Positions 1 to 8,700 of a stretch of DNA of 64,000 nt are shown here, one piece after another (positions within the stretch are counted from its first letter, which is position 1; every line of letters begins with the position of its first letter). The position numbers and the translations under genes are program-made. Below the pieces are notes generated by a model. The model worked only from the letters and a program-made list of their open reading frames with translations, did no database searches and had not been told where the DNA came from. The stretch is from assembly GCF_000214415.1 (NCBI RefSeq), contig NC_015562.1, positions 1,465,130-1,529,129 of the forward strand, written 5' to 3'. The stretch comes from Methanotorris igneus Kol 5. GTDB lineage: Archaea > AGJL01 > Methanococci > Methanococcales > Methanococcaceae.

Positions 1-3000
1 GAAGCTAAATTGGTTAGGGTAGTATTTACACCAGTGCAGTATAATCCAGTAGAGAAGAAAGCTTACATAAACAAAAAAGTTGTTTTTAAAATATCATATA
101 ACTTATTAGGCACCAGTTCCTCAACTGAAAAAGGATATGTGATGTCTCCACAGACATATAAACTACTGAATAACTATAATATCCTAAATAAAAATGTACT
201 AAAAGAAACTACATTACCAAATAGCAACACTAATGCCATATATGATTATGTAATTGTAACAACAAATGATATTGTAAAGTACTCAAGTCAATTAAATAAC
301 AATAACTTTGTTAATTATTTAAAATTTAAAGGATATAATCCTTTAATTATTACTGAAGATGATTATGGATATGAAACTGGACAGCAAAGAGCCATAAATA
401 TTAGAAACTGGCTTAGAAACCACTATCTGACTTACGGAATAAAATATGTGTTACTAATAGGAAACCCAGATCCTGATGACCCCTTGAATAGTTCAGATAG
501 CTATGGAGATATACCAATGATGATGTGTTATCCAAGATATGGTGCTGGGGACGACGATGAAGATTGTCCAACAGATTACTTCTATGCAGATTTAACCGGA
601 AATTGGGATTCTGACGGAAATGGTATATATGGTGATCCTAATGATACTGTAGATTTTTATCCTGAAGTATTTGTTGGTAGGATTCCTGTGTATAATAATG
701 ATTATGGGGCATTAGATGCTATATTATATAAAATAATGACTTATGGAAACACTTATGGAGATTGGAGAAAAAATGTAATGTTGCCAATGGCGATTTCAAA
801 TTATGAAAATGAAGATGGATATAATAGAACAGATGGTAGGGATTTACCAAAATATTTAATTGAAAATTCACTAAATCAAAATGGATTTTCTCATTACGTA
901 ATGTATGAAAGAAGTGGTATAAATCCAGTTCCTACTACTGCTCCATACTACAATGCACCAATAAATAAGTCAAATGTCATTAATGAATGGAACAATGGTT
1001 GTGGGATAGTATTTTGGTGGGGACATGGCTATCATAAAATAGTATATAGGGAAATATGGGTTGAAGATGATGGAGATGGTGTACCAGAATCTAATGAGAT
1101 GAGTTGGATAAGTTTCTTAAACTCTTATGATACTTTAAAGCTAAATAATGATAAACCAGCAATAACCTATCAATGTTCATGTTCAAATGGCTACCCAGAA
1201 GACAGTGATAATTTAGGATATGCTTTATTAAAAAGAGGGGCTATTGCTACAGTTTCAGCTTCAAGAGCATCTTGGTATAAACCAGGGTATTGGTCACCCA
1301 ATGGAGATCCAGACAATGCAGAAATTGGATACGAGTTTGTTAAAAGAGTGGTGGATGGACATCCTGTTGGTGAAGCTTTATATTTAGCAAAAAGTTCTTT
1401 TAGAAATAATCTTGATTCATGTGATATAATGAATTTAATGGATTTTAATTTATATGGAGATCCTTCTTTGACTATAAATGAAAATAGCAATTATACTCCA
1501 CCAAACTATTATGTAATTAATAAGCTTCCTTATACCATAATTCAAAGTGGATATTATGTGTTAAATACTTCCTGTGAAAACCTCAATACAACCGCTATAA
1601 CCATAGATGCAGATAATGTTGTATTGGATGGGAACGGGGAGGTTTTAGATGGATATTGTGCAGATACCTATCCTACTGGAATCATAGTAAATGGACATAA
1701 AAATATCACAATAAAGAATCTAACTGTTAAAGAATTTTGGGATGGAATCTCCCTTTACAGTTCATCAAATAACACAATAACAAATGTAAATGCTTCAAAT
1801 AATAATCATTATGGAATCCGCCTTGACAGTTCATCAAATAACACAATAACAAATGTAAATGTTTCAAATAATAATGATTGTGGAATCTTCCTTGACAGTT
1901 CATCAAATAACACAATATCAAATGTAAATGCTTCGAATAATAATGGTAGTGGAATCTACCTTTGGGATTCATCAAATAATAATACAATAACAGATGTAAT
2001 TGCTAATAACAATAAAGAGGGAATCCGCCTTGTCAGTTCATCAAATAACACAATCTATCTAAACAACCTAATAAACAACAGTGAAAATATTGGACTTTAT
2101 GGTTCATCAAACAACACTTTCCATTCACCAAAACCAATAACTTACATATACAACGGAACAAACTACACTAACTACTTAGGGAACTATTACTCAGACTACA
2201 ATGGAGCTGACTCAGATAAGGATGGAATTGGAGATACTCCATACACAATAGCCGATGGAGTATATGATCAATATCCACTAATAAAACCAATAGAGAATTA
2301 TATCGAAGTTAAATACATAAATAAATTACCATACAAAATAAGTCAAAGTGGGTATTATGTGTTAAATACTTCCTGTGAAAACCTCAATACAACTGCTATA
2401 ATCATAGATGCAGATAATGTTGTATTGGATGGAAACGGAAAGGTTTTAGATGGGAATCATACAAAATATACCACCCCTGGAATCTGTGTAGAATATTATG
2501 GAATCTATATAAGAAATCATAAAAATATTACAATAAAAAATCTAACTGTTAAAGAATTTTATGATGGAATCTTCCTTTGGAATTCATCAAATAACATAAT
2601 AACAAATGTAAGTGCTAATAATAATAATTGTGGAATCTCCCTTGGCAGCTCATCAAATAACACAATAACCAACAATAACTTTAAAAATTGTGGGTTAGAT
2701 GTGTATTATTCATTCAACAACACAATAACAAATAACACAGTTAATGGAAAACTACTGATTTACTTAGAAAATAAGGAAAATGTAGTAATAGATAGTAGTA
2801 GCAACGCTGGACAAGTAATTGCAGTAAATTGTAAGAATATAACCGTTAAAGATGTAGATTTAAGTAATACAACCGTTGGAGTAGAATTTTTGAATGTGTC
2901 AAAAAGTAAGATAATTAATGTAAATGCTTCAAATAATAATGATTGTGGAATCGTCCTTTGGATTTCATCAAATAACACAATAACAAATGTAAATGCTTCG

Positions 3001-6000
3001 AATAATGAAGATGGAATCGTCCTTTTGGATTCGTCAGATAATAACATAATATATCTCAACAACTTAATAAACAACAGTTGTAATATTGAAGGTTGGGATT
3101 CATCAAATAACATCCTCCACTCCCCAGAGGAAATAACCTACATTTACAACGGAAATCAATACACTAACTACTTAGGAAACTACTATTCAGATTACAACGG
3201 AACCGATAACGATGGAGATGGAATTGGAGATACTCCATACACAAAAGGAGGAGTATATGACCAATACCCACTAATAAACCCAGTAGAGAACTACATTATT
3301 GGAAATACAACCCATGAAACCCATGAAGTTAAATATATAAACTCTCTACCATACACCATAACTGAAAGTGGCTACTATGTGTTAAATACTTCCTGTGAAA
3401 ATCTCAATACAACCGCTATAACCATAGATGCTGATAACGTTGTCTTAGATGGGAACGGAAAGGTTTTAGATGGAGATAATACAAAATATACTATCCCTGG
3501 AATCTGTGTAGAATATTATGGAATCAATATAACTGGACATAAAAATATTACAATAAAGAATCTAACTGTTAAAGAATTTTATGAAGGAATCTTCCTTTGG
3601 AATTCATCAAATAACATAATAACAAATGTAAATGCTTCGAATAATAATGATTGTGGAATCCACCTAGGTGGTTCATCAAATAACAACATAATAACAACAG
3701 TAAGTGCTAATAACAATGGTTGGGATGGAATCCACCTTTACAATTCATCAAATAACATAATCTACTTCAACAACTTAATAAACAACAGTGAAAATATTGG
3801 ACTTTGGGGTTCATCATCAAACAACACCTTCCACTCTCCAAAACCAATAACCTACACTTACAACGGAAATCAATACACAAACTACTTAGGAAACTACTAT
3901 TCAGATTACAACGGAAATGATTCAGATGGAGATGGAATTGGAGATACTCCATACACAAATAACGGAATAAACGACTCCTATCCATTAATAAAACCAGTAG
4001 AGAACTACATTATTGGAAATACAACCCATGAAACCCATGAAGTTAAATACATAAACTCTCTACCATACACCATAAATGAAAGTGGCTACTATGTGTTAAA
4101 TACTTCCTGTGAAAATCTCTCTGGAACTGCTATAACCATAGATGCAGATAATGTTGTTTTAGATGGGAACGGAAAGGTTTTGGATGGAGTTGGTAAATAT
4201 AATGGAATCATTGTGAATGGACATAAGAATGTCACAATAAAGAATCTAACTGTTAAGGAGTTTTGGAGAGGAATCTGCCTTGACAGTTCATCAAATAACA
4301 CAATAACAAATGTAAATGTTGATAGCAATGAGGATGGAATCTACCTTGGCAGTTCATCAAATAACACAATAACAAATGTAAGTGCTTCAAATAATGATTG
4401 GTATGGAATCAACCTTTGGATTTCATCAAATAACACAATAACAAATGTAAATGCTTCCGATAATAATGAGTATGGAATTCTACTTTACAGTTCATCAAAT
4501 AACACAATAACAGATGTAATTGCTAATAACAATATAGAGGGAATCCACCTTGACAGTTCATCAAATAATAATATAATAACAGATGTAATTGCTAATAACA
4601 ATAATGAATCTGGAATCGACCTTTGGATTTCATCAAATAACACAATAACAAATGTAAGTGCTTCAAACAATGAAGTGGGAATCTACCTCGACAATTCATC
4701 AAATAACAACATAATATACCTCAACAACTTAATAAATAACAAAAATAGCATTATGATTAGGGATTCATCAAACAACACCTTCCACTCACCAACACCAATA
4801 ACCTACACTTACAACGGAAATCAATACACAAACTACTTAGGAAACTACTATTCAGATTACAGTGGAACTGACTCAAATGGAGATGGAATTGGAGATACTC
4901 CATACACAATAGCCGATGGAGTATATGACCAATACCCACTAATAAACCCAGTAAAGAACTACATCATTGGAAATGAAACAACAACCACATACATCGACTT
5001 ATTAGGAAACCTAAATTATAAAATCATAAATGAAACAGAAAATGCCACAACCTTCGAAATAACATTAACAGTAACAAACAACGGAAACTCAAATAGTGGA
5101 GAATTTAATACAACAATCTACATAAACAACAATCCAGTAAAAACCGAAAGATTATCATTAAATGCAGGAGAATCAAAAGAAATTAAAATCAACTATACAA
5201 CAAATTCAACAAACGACATTGAAATAAAAGCAGTTATTGATACAAATAACGAAGTTGATGAAGTTGATGAAAATAATAACATTATCCTAAAAACCATAAA
5301 ATTCCCAGATGTTGGAATTGCATGGACATACATACCAACAGCAGTAAAAATAAATGAAACCAAAAAATTATGGTTTGATTTAAGAAAAGAGGGCTATGGA
5401 ACTGTTGAAGCAAACTTAACAGTAAAATTAGACGATAAAATAATACACAACGAGAAAATAACATTTGATGAATGGTATTATGATTACATATATAAAGAAA
5501 TTCCAATAACTTTCAACGAATCAGGAACCCACAACATTACAATAACCATAACTCCAATAGGTACAAAAGACAGAAATGTGGCGGATAACACAAAAACCAT
5601 AAGTGTTACAGTAAAAGAGATAAAAGCAGACATTAAAGAAGTTTATGGATTGCCATACAACAATGTCTTACAGGCAGATGGAGAGTACTGGATAGATGTT
5701 TACTACAATGTCTCAGTTCCAAGTTACTACACAATTAAAATAAACACAACGAAAGGTATCCAAATAATTGGAGATTCTGAAAAAACAAGATACACTTGGA
5801 GATATGGATGGACATACTTCAAAATAAAAGCAGTTGATATTTCAAATGATGAAAATATATCAATAGAGATATTTGACAATAACAACAAATTATTGGCAAA
5901 TAAAACACTAACCGGAATAAAAATAACTGACCATCCAGTTGAAATTAAGTATTCGAACATCACTTGCACAAATTCATCAGCGAATTTAACATTTATGGTA

Positions 6001-7698
6001 TTTAATACAACAAAATACGATGTCGATAGACATATTGAATATATGGTAATGGTTGGAGAACAAGGAAGAATTCTAAAAGGAATTGAATACCTCGCTGAAT
6101 ATCCACACGGATGTATTGAGCAAACAACATCACCAATGGTTGCATCTATCTATGTTAAAAAATACTGTGAGCAAAACAATATTTCAACAAATATTGACTT
6201 TGATTCTATGGTAAATAATGGGATTGAAAGATTAACAACCGGAATCAGAAAACCAAAAGTAATCTCAAATAATGAATACGCCTGGGGACTTTGGGGATCA
6301 TTATATCCAAAACCAATCCACACTGGATATGTATTATACGGATTAACTACTGCAAATATGAGTGGTTATGCTGTAGATATGAAATATATTGAAAATGGAG
6401 CAAGATATTTAGTACATTCACAAAATAGCGATGGAAGCTGGAACACTGGATATACATATTACATGAGGGATGAATTCTCAAGCAATGCATTAATTACAAT
6501 AAGTTTGGCACAAACATACAACTTAACAACAAATGAAACACTGAAACAAGAAATCTTCAATGCAACAAACAAATCAGTAAGATACCTGATCAGTCAAAAC
6601 ATAGATAAAAATAACATCTACGACTTAGGATTCAAAGCATGGGCATTATCAGAAGCATACAATATGGGAATTAATGACTCAGAAGTTAAAGATGCATTAA
6701 ACCAAACAATTAAAGATATTGGAAACTGGATAAATGAACACAATAATGCAAATGTCATCTCATTATTCAGAGGAACTTCAAGTTACAGCGTATATGGAGT
6801 TGCATCAGAGAGTATTGCTGTAGCCTCAATTGGATGTCAAAAAGCAAAAGATATTATAGATAACGATGAATACATAACCCTAAACAACATGCTAATAAAC
6901 ATATACAGCAGATATGGCGGTTCTGGATGGGGTTCAACAAAATCCACTGGCTTAGCATTAAGGGCATTAACTGAATCAGGAAATGCAACAAACACCAACA
7001 ACATCCAAATAACTGTAAAAGTTGATGGAAATAAAATAGATACAATAACTGTAAATGCAACAAATCCAAAATTCATAGGAAAATACTACAACAACACACT
7101 ATTAACAAGTGGAGAACACAATATAACATTTGAATTTAGTGGAGACTCCAAAATATTATGTGGAGTTCTAATGTCACAAACAACACCATATTCAATAGCA
7201 ATAAAAAGTGATGGTAAGGATTATATCGACCCATTAGCAGAAGATTTCAACTTAACAATAACAACAACAAAAGCCATTGTTGGTAGGGAATTTAATGCAA
7301 CATTTACCATAATTAACAAAGATACTGAACCTATTGAAGTAGGAATTTTAGAAATAAAATTACCGAAAGGAATGAACTATACAAACATAACAAAATACAT
7401 GGATCTACCATACAGCATTAAATTCAACTCAACAACAAATGAAACGACACTATACATTTATCCTGAAATAGTAAATGCATCAAGCAGTTTATCAATAACA
7501 ATTCCATTAAATGTAACAGAAGAAAATGCAAATGATATTGAAGCCGTATTCTATCCGATGTACAATGAAGAAACAATAGCTCCAGCAAAAGCAACAATAA
7601 CCGTAACTCCAATAAGAAAAATGAATATAGCACTTCCAACAGGATGGACAATGGATGTTGAAGAAAAAGAAGATAAAACAATAATTACCATTAAATAA
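1..7698 (+). CDS. Giant secreted C25 peptidase / NosD beta-helix / thioester-domain protein (5' end outside window)
   Basis: The frame is open from base 1, so the true start and signal peptide lie upstream; about 2,565 residues are visible. Counting the TTG at base 10 as residue 1, residues 1-60 look like a C25 propeptide and about 75-500 like a gingipain-type catalytic domain, with His339 (WWGHGYH) and Cys391 (CSCSNGYP) as the likely dyad. Residues 500-1650 hold four NosD-like right-handed beta-helix modules; each opens with an SGYYVLNTSCENL-type motif and closes with YTNYLGNYYSDY plus a DGDGIGD-type turn. CARDB/Ig-like regions follow, then an alpha-2-macroglobulin-like thioester domain with GCIEQT (Cys2035), helical repeats and a C-terminal Ig-like region. 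There is no C-terminal membrane anchor. Many NxS/T sites suit a glycosylated surface protein. It probably cleaves or covalently attaches to external targets; this is inferred. The S-layer-like gene follows closely. Confidence 0.85.
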   Translation, partial: EAKLVRVVFTPVQYNPVEKKAYINKKVVFKISYNLLGTSSSTEKGYVMSPQTYKLLNNYNILNKNVLKETTLPNSNTNAIYDYVIVTTNDIVKYSSQLNNNNFVNYLKFKGYNPLIITEDDYGYETGQQRAINIRNWLRNHYLTYGIKYVLLIGNPDPDDPLNSSDSYGDIPMMMCYPRYGAGDDDEDCPTDYFYADLTGNWDSDGNGIYGDPNDTVDFYPEVFVGRIPVYNNDYGALDAILYKIMTYGNTYGDWRKNVMLPMAISNYENEDGYNRTDGRDLPKYLIENSLNQNGFSHYVMYERSGINPVPTTAPYYNAPINKSNVINEWNNGCGIVFWWGHGYHKIVYREIWVEDDGDGVPESNEMSWISFLNSYDTLKLNNDKPAITYQCSCSNGYPEDSDNLGYALLKRGAIATVSASRASWYKPGYWSPNGDPDNAEIGYEFVKRVVDGHPVGEALYLAKSSFRNNLDSCDIMNLMDFNLYGDPSLTINENSNYTPPNYYVINKLPYTIIQSGYYVLNTSCENLNTTAITIDADNVVLDGNGEVLDGYCADTYPTGIIVNGHKNITIKNLTVKEFWDGISLYSSSNNTITNVNASNNNHYGIRLDSSSNNTITNVNVSNNNDCGIFLDSSSNNTISNVNASNNNGSGIYLWDSSNNNTITDVIANNNKEGIRLVSSSNNTIYLNNLINNSENIGLYGSSNNTFHSPKPITYIYNGTNYTNYLGNYYSDYNGADSDKDGIGDTPYTIADGVYDQYPLIKPIENYIEVKYINKLPYKISQSGYYVLNTSCENLNTTAIIIDADNVVLDGNGKVLDGNHTKYTTPGICVEYYGIYIRNHKNITIKNLTVKEFYDGIFLWNSSNNIITNVSANNNNCGISLGSSSNNTITNNNFKNCGLDVYYSFNNTITNNTVNGKLLIYLENKENVVIDSSSNAGQVIAVNCKNITVKDVDLSNTTVGVEFLNVSKSKIINVNASNNNDCGIVLWISSNNTITNVNASNNEDGIVLLDSSDNNIIYLNNLINNSCNIEGWDSSNNILHSPEEITYIYNGNQYTNYLGNYYSDYNGTDNDGDGIGDTPYTKGGVYDQYPLINPVENYIIGNTTHETHEVKYINSLPYTITESGYYVLNTSCENLNTTAITIDADNVVLDGNGKVLDGDNTKYTIPGICVEYYGINITGHKNITIKNLTVKEFYEGIFLWNSSNNIITNVNASNNNDCGIHLGGSSNNNIITTVSANNNGWDGIHLYNSSNNIIYFNNLINNSENIGLWGSSSNNTFHSPKPITYTYNGNQYTNYLGNYYSDYNGNDSDGDGIGDTPYTNNGINDSYPLIKPVENYIIGNTTHETHEVKYINSLPYTINESGYYVLNTSCENLSGTAITIDADNVVLDGNGKVLDGVGKYNGIIVNGHKNVTIKNLTVKEFWRGICLDSSSNNTITNVNVDSNEDGIYLGSSSNNTITNVSASNNDWYGINLWISSNNTITNVNASDNNEYGILLYSSSNNTITDVIANNNIEGIHLDSSSNNNIITDVIANNNNESGIDLWISSNNTITNVSASNNEVGIYLDNSSNNNIIYLNNLINNKNSIMIRDSSNNTFHSPTPITYTYNGNQYTNYLGNYYSDYSGTDSNGDGIGDTPYTIADGVYDQYPLINPVKNYIIGNETTTTYIDLLGNLNYKIINETENATTFEITLTVTNNGNSNSGEFNTTIYINNNPVKTERLSLNAGESKEIKINYTTNSTNDIEIKAVIDTNNEVDEVDENNNIILKTIKFPDVGIAWTYIPTAVKINETKKLWFDLRKEGYGTVEANLTVKLDDKIIHNEKITFDEWYYDYIYKEIPITFNESGTHNITITITPIGTKDRNVADNTKTISVTVKEIKADIKEVYGLPYNNVLQADGEYWIDVYYNVSVPSYYTIKINTTKGIQIIGDSEKTRYTWRYGWTYFKIKAVDISNDENISIEIFDNNNKLLANKTLTGIKITDHPVEIKYSNITCTNSSANLTFMVFNTTKYDVDRHIEYMVMVGEQGRILKGIEYLAEYPHGCIEQTTSPMVASIYVKKYCEQNNISTNIDFDSMVNNGIERLTTGIRKPKVISNNEYAWGLWGSLYPKPIHTGYVLYGLTTANMSGYAVDMKYIENGARYLVHSQNSDGSWNTGYTYYMRDEFSSNALITISLAQTYNLTTNETLKQEIFNATNKSVRYLISQNIDKNNIYDLGFKAWALSEAYNMGINDSEVKDALNQTIKDIGNWINEHNNANVISLFRGTSSYSVYGVASESIAVASIGCQKAKDIIDNDEYITLNNMLINIYSRYGGSGWGSTKSTGLALRALTESGNATNTNNIQITVKVDGNKIDTITVNATNPKFIGKYYNNTLLTSGEHNITFEFSGDSKILCGVLMSQTTPYSIAIKSDGKDYIDPLAEDFNLTITTTKAIVGREFNATFTIINKDTEPIEVGILEIKLPKGMNYTNITKYMDLPYSIKFNSTTNETTLYIYPEIVNASSSLSITIPLNVTEENANDIEAVFYPMYNEETIAPAKATITVTPIRKMNIALPTGWTMDVEEKEDKTIITIK

Positions 7699-7737
7699 CT
7701 TTAAATTTTCTTTTTTTAAATTTTGGAGGTGGAGTTA

Positions 7738-8700
7738 ATGAAATATATTTATGTCATGTTAGGAATGATGCTTTTATTATTGATTCCAATGGTTGCAGGG
7801 GAGGTTAAAGAGATACCTCAAGGGAATGTTGAAATAAATATAATCCAATATAATGTATCGTTCAACTACACGCTTGAAGAAGATAAAAATCTAACAATAT
7901 TGGAACTAAACACTTCAAAAGAAGGTGATATTGTAGCATATTTTGATAATAAGCCATTATTTTTATATAGGCCATCTAATGATTCATCAGCAAAGACATA
8001 TAACATCTCTCTATTAAATGGGACAATTGCAATAGTGGGAGTTAATGCATCAAACTATAATAAAATTGAAGAAACTACAAATTGTACTTTTGTAGGATGG
8101 AATAAAACACTTGGATATGCATTTTTCTTATTTGATAATATAGGAGAATCAAAATCAGGAATTATTAAGTTAAAATATGAACCACAAGCATCAACAACTA
8201 CAACAACGACTACATCCTATAGTAGTGGAGGAGGAGGTGGCAGCCATCACATAACTACTACTGAGCAATACCCAGGAGTAGCAGAAGATATAAAATCAGA
8301 GAAAATAAAAGAAATGGTTTATAAGGCTAAGATAATAATCGGTTCAGAAGTAGATAACAACTTATCTGCAAAATACCTTAAGAATACCACTGAATTAGTG
8401 AATCAGTCATTAGAAATAAAAGAAGATTGTATTTTAATTGGAGGTCCTGTAGCAAATCCAGTAGTTAAAAAATGGCTATGGGCATTTCCAGTTAAAATAA
8501 CTAATGACTATCCAGGTAAGAATAGAGGAGTTATAGAAAAACAGATGATAAACGACCACATAGTAATACTCTTAGCAGGTTCAGACAGATGGGGAACAAA
8601 AGCGGCTGTAGAATACTTCAAGACATTAGATGATATTCCAGATGAACCAATATTCGTAGAATGGAAAGATGGAAAGGCTGTGAAGATTGAAAAACCATAA
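7738..8700 (+). CDS. S-layer-like secreted protein
   Basis: The 320-aa product starts at ATG 7738, preceded by a strong GGAGGTGG ribosome site; an in-frame TTG at 7723 lies in front of that site and is unlikely. Residues 1-21 form a signal peptide (MKYIYVMLGMM then a hydrophobic run, cut near VAG-E). After a beta-rich N-terminal domain comes a low-complexity linker of Thr and Gly (TTTTTTSYSSGGGGG). The C-terminal domain carries IGGPVANP and LLAGSDRWGTKAAVEYF, which resemble the repeat domain of methanogen S-layer proteins. It begins 39 bp after the giant peptidase gene and is probably co-transcribed, so the two may act together at the cell envelope. It is much shorter than a real S-layer subunit, so I call it S-layer-like only. 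Confidence 0.75.
   Translation: MKYIYVMLGMMLLLLIPMVAGEVKEIPQGNVEINIIQYNVSFNYTLEEDKNLTILELNTSKEGDIVAYFDNKPLFLYRPSNDSSAKTYNISLLNGTIAIVGVNASNYNKIEETTNCTFVGWNKTLGYAFFLFDNIGESKSGIIKLKYEPQASTTTTTTTSYSSGGGGGSHHITTTEQYPGVAEDIKSEKIKEMVYKAKIIIGSEVDNNLSAKYLKNTTELVNQSLEIKEDCILIGGPVANPVVKKWLWAFPVKITNDYPGKNRGVIEKQMINDHIVILLAGSDRWGTKAAVEYFKTLDDIPDEPIFVEWKDGKAVKIEKP

What the first reader, a model, noticed from the sequence alone, without database searches (positions are those of the whole stretch)
1..7698. C25 peptidase, four beta-helix modules and a thioester domain in one surface protein
One chain joins a gingipain-type cysteine protease with its dyad in place (His339, Cys391), four near-repeat NosD-type modules, and an alpha-2-macroglobulin-type domain with GCIEQ. 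In known proteins, C-x-E-Q forms an internal thioester that binds targets covalently. A protease and a covalent trap in the same archaeal protein suggest attachment to, or attack on, other cells or surfaces. The four modules share long DNA-level similarity, so recombination may change their number.
Basis: partly seen in the sequence, partly recalled or inferred. Interest (0 to 1): 0.68.

Follow-up and report, generated by a model that had tools for sequence, protein, structure and literature searches.

The report
Archaeal surface protease with complement-like domain
A heat-loving methane-producing archaeon carries a giant cell-surface protein that joins a protein-cutting enzyme to a domain like the one complement proteins use to bond to targets, and a related species carries the same bonding part with a different enzyme attached.

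Summary
The open frame continues upstream: the protein is 2,719 aa, with a signal-peptide-like start and a C25 propeptide. C25 (E 2e-42; its His aligns with the GHG histidine of gingipain R), four NosD modules (77-88% DNA identity), CARDB and an A2M/complement TED with GCIEQ (E 1e-14; PDB hits C5, C3, TEP1, A2M, YfhM) lie in one chain. Archaeal TED proteins with CxEQ were already reported (PMC8416519), so the domain is not new. New here: (1) a C25+TED fusion, in 1 of 36 Methanococcales genomes. (2) At the same hisC-cobQ locus in another genus, the same CARDB-TED base carries an M6 metalloprotease instead. (3) A ~3.2 kb block (CARDB-TED plus the N-terminal domain of the next, S-layer-linked protein) has 83-93% identity at 4-fold sites between the genera, against 44-51% in flanking genes, with sharp edges at module borders: it moved as a unit. 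(4) That next-gene domain occurs only beside this TED subtype (3 of 36 genomes). Best reading: an S-layer-linked thioester base with an adapter and exchangeable protease heads, for attachment to or attack on other surfaces. Thioester formation, target and protease activity are untested.

The parts
1..129 (+). 3' end of the C25 propeptide (residues 45-197 of the full protein; the start of the gene lies outside the window at L002:9539)
   Evidence: Pfam Propeptide_C25 E 3e-12; gene start
247..1473 (+). C25 (gingipain-type) catalytic domain; His496 codon at 1024-1026, Cys548 codon at 1180-1182
   Evidence: Pfam E 2e-42; genome search places it at G000:C1:1465376-1466602; gingipain R best PDB hit
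1516..2316 (+). NosD-type beta-helix module 1
   Evidence: Pfam/NCBIfam, repeats
2317..3336 (+). NosD-type beta-helix module 2
3337..4050 (+). NosD-type beta-helix module 3
4051..4977 (+). NosD-type beta-helix module 4
5029..5283 (+). CARDB (Ig-like) domain
   Evidence: Pfam CARDB E 3e-15
6070..6975 (+). A2M/complement-type TED domain; GCIEQ (thioester motif) at 6109-6123
   Evidence: Pfam TED_complement E 1e-14; PDB profile hits; motif invariant in four genomes
6976..7695 (+). C-terminal region after the TED, conserved with G034 and G018; possible second half of a CUB-like and a receptor-binding-like domain
   Evidence: alignment; domain names inferred, no Pfam match
7738..8700 (+). Next gene: secreted partner. 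N-terminal domain 7801-8187 found only beside this TED subtype; C-terminal S_layer_C-type domain about 8230-8697
   Evidence: physical interaction not testable here
4978..8206 (+). Block shared at about 90% DNA identity with G034, from the end of NosD module 4 to the end of the partner's N-terminal domain

Best explanation
It is a secreted, S-layer-linked modular protein. A C25 cysteine protease head, made with its own propeptide, sits on a long beta-helix stalk (1,154 residues, at most about 50 coils of 23). The base is an Ig-like/TED unit whose GCIEQ forms an internal thioester. The base is held at the cell surface by the next gene's product: the partner's N-terminal domain pairs with the TED protein, and its C-terminal S-layer-type domain fixes the pair to the archaeon's own S-layer. 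When the thioester is exposed it bonds covalently to amines on a neighbouring surface or molecule, while the protease cuts. The protease head is an exchangeable part; recombination at module borders swaps heads and moves the TED-plus-adapter block between lineages. Shown by sequence: the architecture, intact motifs, the C25/M6 difference at one locus, the block transfer, and the strict TED-adapter linkage. Inferred: thioester formation, adapter binding, S-layer anchoring, targets, and the role (attachment to or attack on other cells).
For: Architecture and motifs. G034 carries an M6 metalloprotease with NosD repeats at the same hisC-cobQ locus, before the same CARDB-TED and partner gene. The block 4978-8206 is about 90% identical between G000 and G034 with sharp edges; 4-fold site identity is 83% (CARDB-TED) and 93% (partner N-domain) against 45% HisC, 50% CobQ and 38% for the partner's S-layer-type domain. 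The partner N-domain occurs in 3 of 36 genomes, each time directly after this TED subtype. The S_layer_C-type domain ends many large surface proteins of the order. The gene is sporadic: C25 in 3 and TED in 4 of 36 genomes, cassette absent from the sister species.
Against: No chemistry, expression or localisation data. The position of the complement catalytic His is Met. In G034 the M6-NosD part and the TED part are in different frames, so the M6-TED fusion may be broken or mis-sequenced there. Two relatives of the C25 gene are broken, so the head is dispensable. Internal thioesters are heat-labile in animal proteins (general knowledge), and this organism, if M. igneus, is grown at 85 C (PMC7935968). 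Only one genome has the C25+TED fusion.
Confidence: 0.5

Rival explanations
1. Self-anchoring: the thioester is used in cis and links the TED protein covalently to its own adapter or S-layer, a sortase-free way to fix a protease on the cell surface. The targets of the protease are then a separate matter.
For: TED and the partner's N-terminal domain travelled together while the S-layer-type domain stayed local, and they occur only together. The TED protein has no other visible anchor at its C-terminus.
Against: Co-transfer is equally explained by non-covalent pairing. In G024 the TED protein carries a dockerin instead, so covalent linkage to this adapter is not general.
Confidence: 0.2
2. Self-contained activation: the protease cuts its own chain or the target and thereby exposes the thioester, as C3 convertase does for C3, so protease and TED act in sequence as a complement-like tagging device.
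For: Two unrelated protease types (C25, M6) stand upstream of the same TED base, which suggests that proteolysis as such matters.
Against: The TED proteins of G018 and G024 have no recognised protease domain. No bait region or cleavage site is recognisable.
Confidence: 0.15
3. Ordinary surface proteolysis or S-layer maintenance: the TED is a structural relic without a working thioester and the protein is a surface protease on a stalk.
For: C25 enzymes in other archaea are discussed as extracellular protein degraders (PMC6461988). NosD and S_layer_C modules are general surface parts in this order. Thioester stability near 85 C is uncertain.
Against: GCIEQ is invariant among TED proteins whose identity to ours falls to 32%. 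The gene is sporadic and absent from the sister species, unlike a house-keeping gene.
Confidence: 0.15

Closest known systems
Archaeal alpha-2-macroglobulin/TEP homologues (PMC8416519)
   Same: Secreted archaeal proteins with a TED and an intact CxEQ motif, reported in 27 proteins of 24 genomes with differing domain organisations; proposed roles in immunity or conflict
   Different: The text does not mention Methanotorris, NosD or a C25/M6 fusion (supplements not readable, so this protein may be among the 27). Protease-head exchange and the co-transferred adapter domain are not described there.
Bacterial and animal A2M, complement C3/C4/C5, insect TEP1
   Same: TED domain homology over about 300 residues; Cys and Gln of the thioester motif in place
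   Different: No recognised MG1-6 or bait region; Met where complement and TEP1 have His; fused to a protease and a beta-helix stalk
Gingipains (peptidase family C25, Porphyromonas)
   Same: C25 propeptide and catalytic domain, His and Cys in place
   Different: Archaeal, no type IX secretion context, fused to NosD modules and a TED, preceded by a small lipoprotein gene
VARTIG modules of Thermococcales (PMC8416519)
   Same: Large archaeal surface protein with Ig-like domains diversified by recombination, suggested role in conflict or self/non-self recognition
   Different: In VARTIG the C-terminal Ig domain varies; here the N-terminal enzyme head varies and the C-terminal base is kept

Membership tests
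Peptidase family C25 | Catalytic domain matches the family model over its length | tested here: met
   Pfam E 2e-42, positions 1-373 of 374
Peptidase family C25 | Catalytic His and Cys in place | tested here: met
   WGHG aligns with gingipain R GHGSE; Cys548 in CSNG matches C-x-N-G by eye and from memory of RgpB; both residues kept in two broken relatives
Peptidase family C25 | Proteolytic activity | not testable with these tools
   needs an enzyme assay
A2M/complement/TEP (thioester-containing) family | TED domain homology | tested here: met
A2M/complement/TEP (thioester-containing) family | CxEQ motif at the aligned position | tested here: met
   GCIEQ on GCGEQ of TEP1; invariant in four genomes
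A2M/complement/TEP (thioester-containing) family | Alpha/alpha-toroid fold around the motif | tested here: inconclusive
   single-sequence model pLDDT 36; supported only by profile alignment
A2M/complement/TEP (thioester-containing) family | MG1-6 domains and bait region | tested here: not met
   no such Pfam match in the protein; so it is a TED-bearing protein, not a full A2M
A2M/complement/TEP (thioester-containing) family | Catalytic His of complement and TEP1 | tested here: not met
   aligned residue is Met, Ile in G024; weak stretch of alignment. Not a defining feature of A2M itself.
A2M/complement/TEP (thioester-containing) family | Internal thioester actually formed | not testable with these tools
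   needs amine labelling and mass spectrometry
S-layer-linked surface complex | Partner with S_layer_C-type domain encoded next to the TED gene | tested here: met
   G000, G034, G018 directly; G024 two genes on
S-layer-linked surface complex | Physical binding of TED protein, partner and S-layer | not testable with these tools
   needs pull-down or imaging

The most novel reading that the evidence does not exclude
Methanococcales have a cassette-exchange surface system: a mobile thioester base with its own S-layer adapter, on which different protease heads (C25, M6) are mounted by recombination at module borders, acting as a covalent capture-and-cut device against other cells or as a covalent self-anchor, in a hyperthermophile.
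Probability: 0.35. Interest if true: 0.8.

Novelty: new variant of a known kind. Interest (0 to 1): 0.63.

Why it matters
If the thioester is real, this is complement-type covalent chemistry in a hyperthermophilic archaeon, fused to a protease and subject to exchange of parts between genera. It gives a concrete, testable case for the proposed archaeal complement-like or conflict systems, raises the question of how an internal thioester survives near 85 C, and offers a possible sortase-free way to fix enzymes on an S-layer.

Tried and rejected
Structure prediction of the TED and C25 regions from single sequences: mean pLDDT 36 and 35, not used, so no fold search was run. Relatives taken with the genome search are not among the sources the folding tool lists as allowed, so no alignment was supplied. 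Rfam: nothing in the region. A classical A2M protease trap was rejected: no MG1-6 or bait domains. Donor NosD copies elsewhere in this genome: none, all NosD hits lie in this gene. Simple vertical inheritance of the 90% block was rejected, because its 4-fold sites are far more alike than those of the flanking genes.

Full report
What is there. The window begins inside a gene. The frame is open upstream, and the gene starts at an ATG at L002:9539 that overlaps the stop of a small lipoprotein gene as TGATG. The product has 2,719 residues with a signal-peptide-like start (by eye) and 111 N-glycosylation sequons. Pfam finds Propeptide_C25, C25, NosD/beta-helix, CARDB and TED_complement, all over cut-off.

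The protease. The C25 match covers the whole family model. A profile built with two relatives finds gingipain R as its best PDB hit and places WWGHG on YTGHGSE, which holds the catalytic His (identity of the catalytic residue from general knowledge). Cys548 sits in C-S-N-G, matching the C-x-N-G of gingipains from memory of the RgpB sequence. The only other C25 genes in 36 genomes of the order are broken: G030 by one frame change (possibly an error in a draft genome), G024 by many stops. Both keep the GHG histidine and the CSCxNG cysteine.

The TED. Profile A1 hits complement C5, C3, C4, TEP1, A2M and bacterial YfhM; the best alignments run about 300 residues, from the GCIEQ segment to GWGST. 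GCIEQ is invariant in four Methanococcales TED proteins whose identity to ours falls to 32%. The histidine that assists the complement reaction aligns with Met (Ile in G024), which points to A2M-like rather than complement-like reactivity. That stretch of alignment is weak, so this is a lead.

Protease exchange. In G034, a different genus, the same place between hisC and cobQ holds an unrelated lipoprotein, an M6 metalloprotease (E 1e-30) with NosD repeats, then CARDB-TED and the partner gene. The M6-NosD and TED parts are in different frames there, overlapping at ATGA. In G018 the TED protein has CARDB but no recognised protease; in G024 it has PKD, CARDB and dockerin domains. In the sister species G035 hisC and cobQ are about 70 bases apart with no cassette, and in four genomes of another genus hisC also lies directly beside cobQ.

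Block transfer. Identity between G000 and G034 is 83-96% in every 150-base step from 5060 to 8206, mostly near 90%, and the alignable stretch begins at the end of NosD module 4 (window 4978). It drops at once to 54-80% outside. At 4-fold degenerate sites: CARDB-TED 83%, partner N-domain 93%, partner S-layer-type domain 38%, HisC 45%, CobQ 50%, two further flanking genes 44% and 51%. So the TED base and the adapter domain were exchanged recently as one unit, while the protease head and the S-layer-type domain stayed local. The direction is unknown.

The adapter. The partner's N-terminal domain occurs in 3 of 36 genomes, exactly those with this TED subtype, each time as the next gene. If independent, full overlap of three and three among 36 has probability 1/7140. 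The S_layer_C-type C-terminal domain is common in large surface proteins throughout the order. In G024, whose TED protein carries a dockerin, the next gene has a cohesin-like start (by eye; Pfam finds only CARDB) and the one after it an S_layer_C domain. Together this suggests that the TED protein is held on the S-layer by a second protein in each case; binding itself is not shown.

Stalk. The four NosD modules (77-88% DNA identity, exact matches up to 68 bp) consist of 23-residue coils. At about 0.48 nm per coil (textbook value), 1,154 residues would give at most about 24 nm, enough to carry the protease out from the surface. This is an inference.

Prior art. Archaeal TED proteins with CxEQ are known and were proposed to act in immunity or conflict (PMC8416519). 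C25 in archaea is known (PMC6461988). Dockerin, cohesin and S-layer combinations are known from ANME archaea (PMC9012536). A search for papers combining gingipains, archaea and alpha-2-macroglobulin found none. The fusion, the C25/M6 exchange and the co-transfer with an adapter domain appear unreported, with the caveat that subscription papers and supplements were not searched.

Verdict. The domain claim is solid. The exchangeable-head and block-transfer claims are well supported by sequence, with one species on each side. Thioester chemistry, anchoring and purpose are inferred. It is a new variant of archaeal thioester proteins rather than a new kind of system.

Noticed in passing
L002:9072-9539 (just upstream of the window): Small lipoprotein (P0003) translationally coupled to the big gene (TGATG). 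Good relatives occur only beside C25 genes (G030, G024); G034 has an unrelated lipoprotein in the same place before its M6 protease. Possible inhibitor or chaperone of the protease head.
   Followed up: partly
window 8230-8697: The S_layer_C-type C-terminal domain of the partner recurs in large surface proteins of all 36 genomes, up to 23 matches in one genome, and within this genome two copies are nearly identical (L090), suggesting a general surface-anchoring module that is homogenised within a genome.
   Followed up: partly
L090:747-5701: The same genome encodes a 1,147-aa protein with cohesin-like repeats and the S_layer_C-type end, followed by a protein with a dockerin-like start: a possible scaffoldin-like pair (read by eye).
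   Followed up: no
L012:7640-7680: Frame break in G034 between the M6-NosD and TED parts, with an ATGA overlap and no long homopolymer; real mutation, coupled two-chain gene or sequence error.
   Followed up: no
L002:8974-9040: What looks like a remnant of another signal-peptide start (MRKYLILS, then a stop) upstream of the lipoprotein gene, perhaps debris of an earlier surface gene at this locus.
   Followed up: no
L013:4239-12400: In G024 a TED protein with a dockerin is followed by a gene with a cohesin-like start and then by an S_layer_C-domain gene, which suggests dockerin-cohesin docking of a TED protein on the S-layer.
   Followed up: partly
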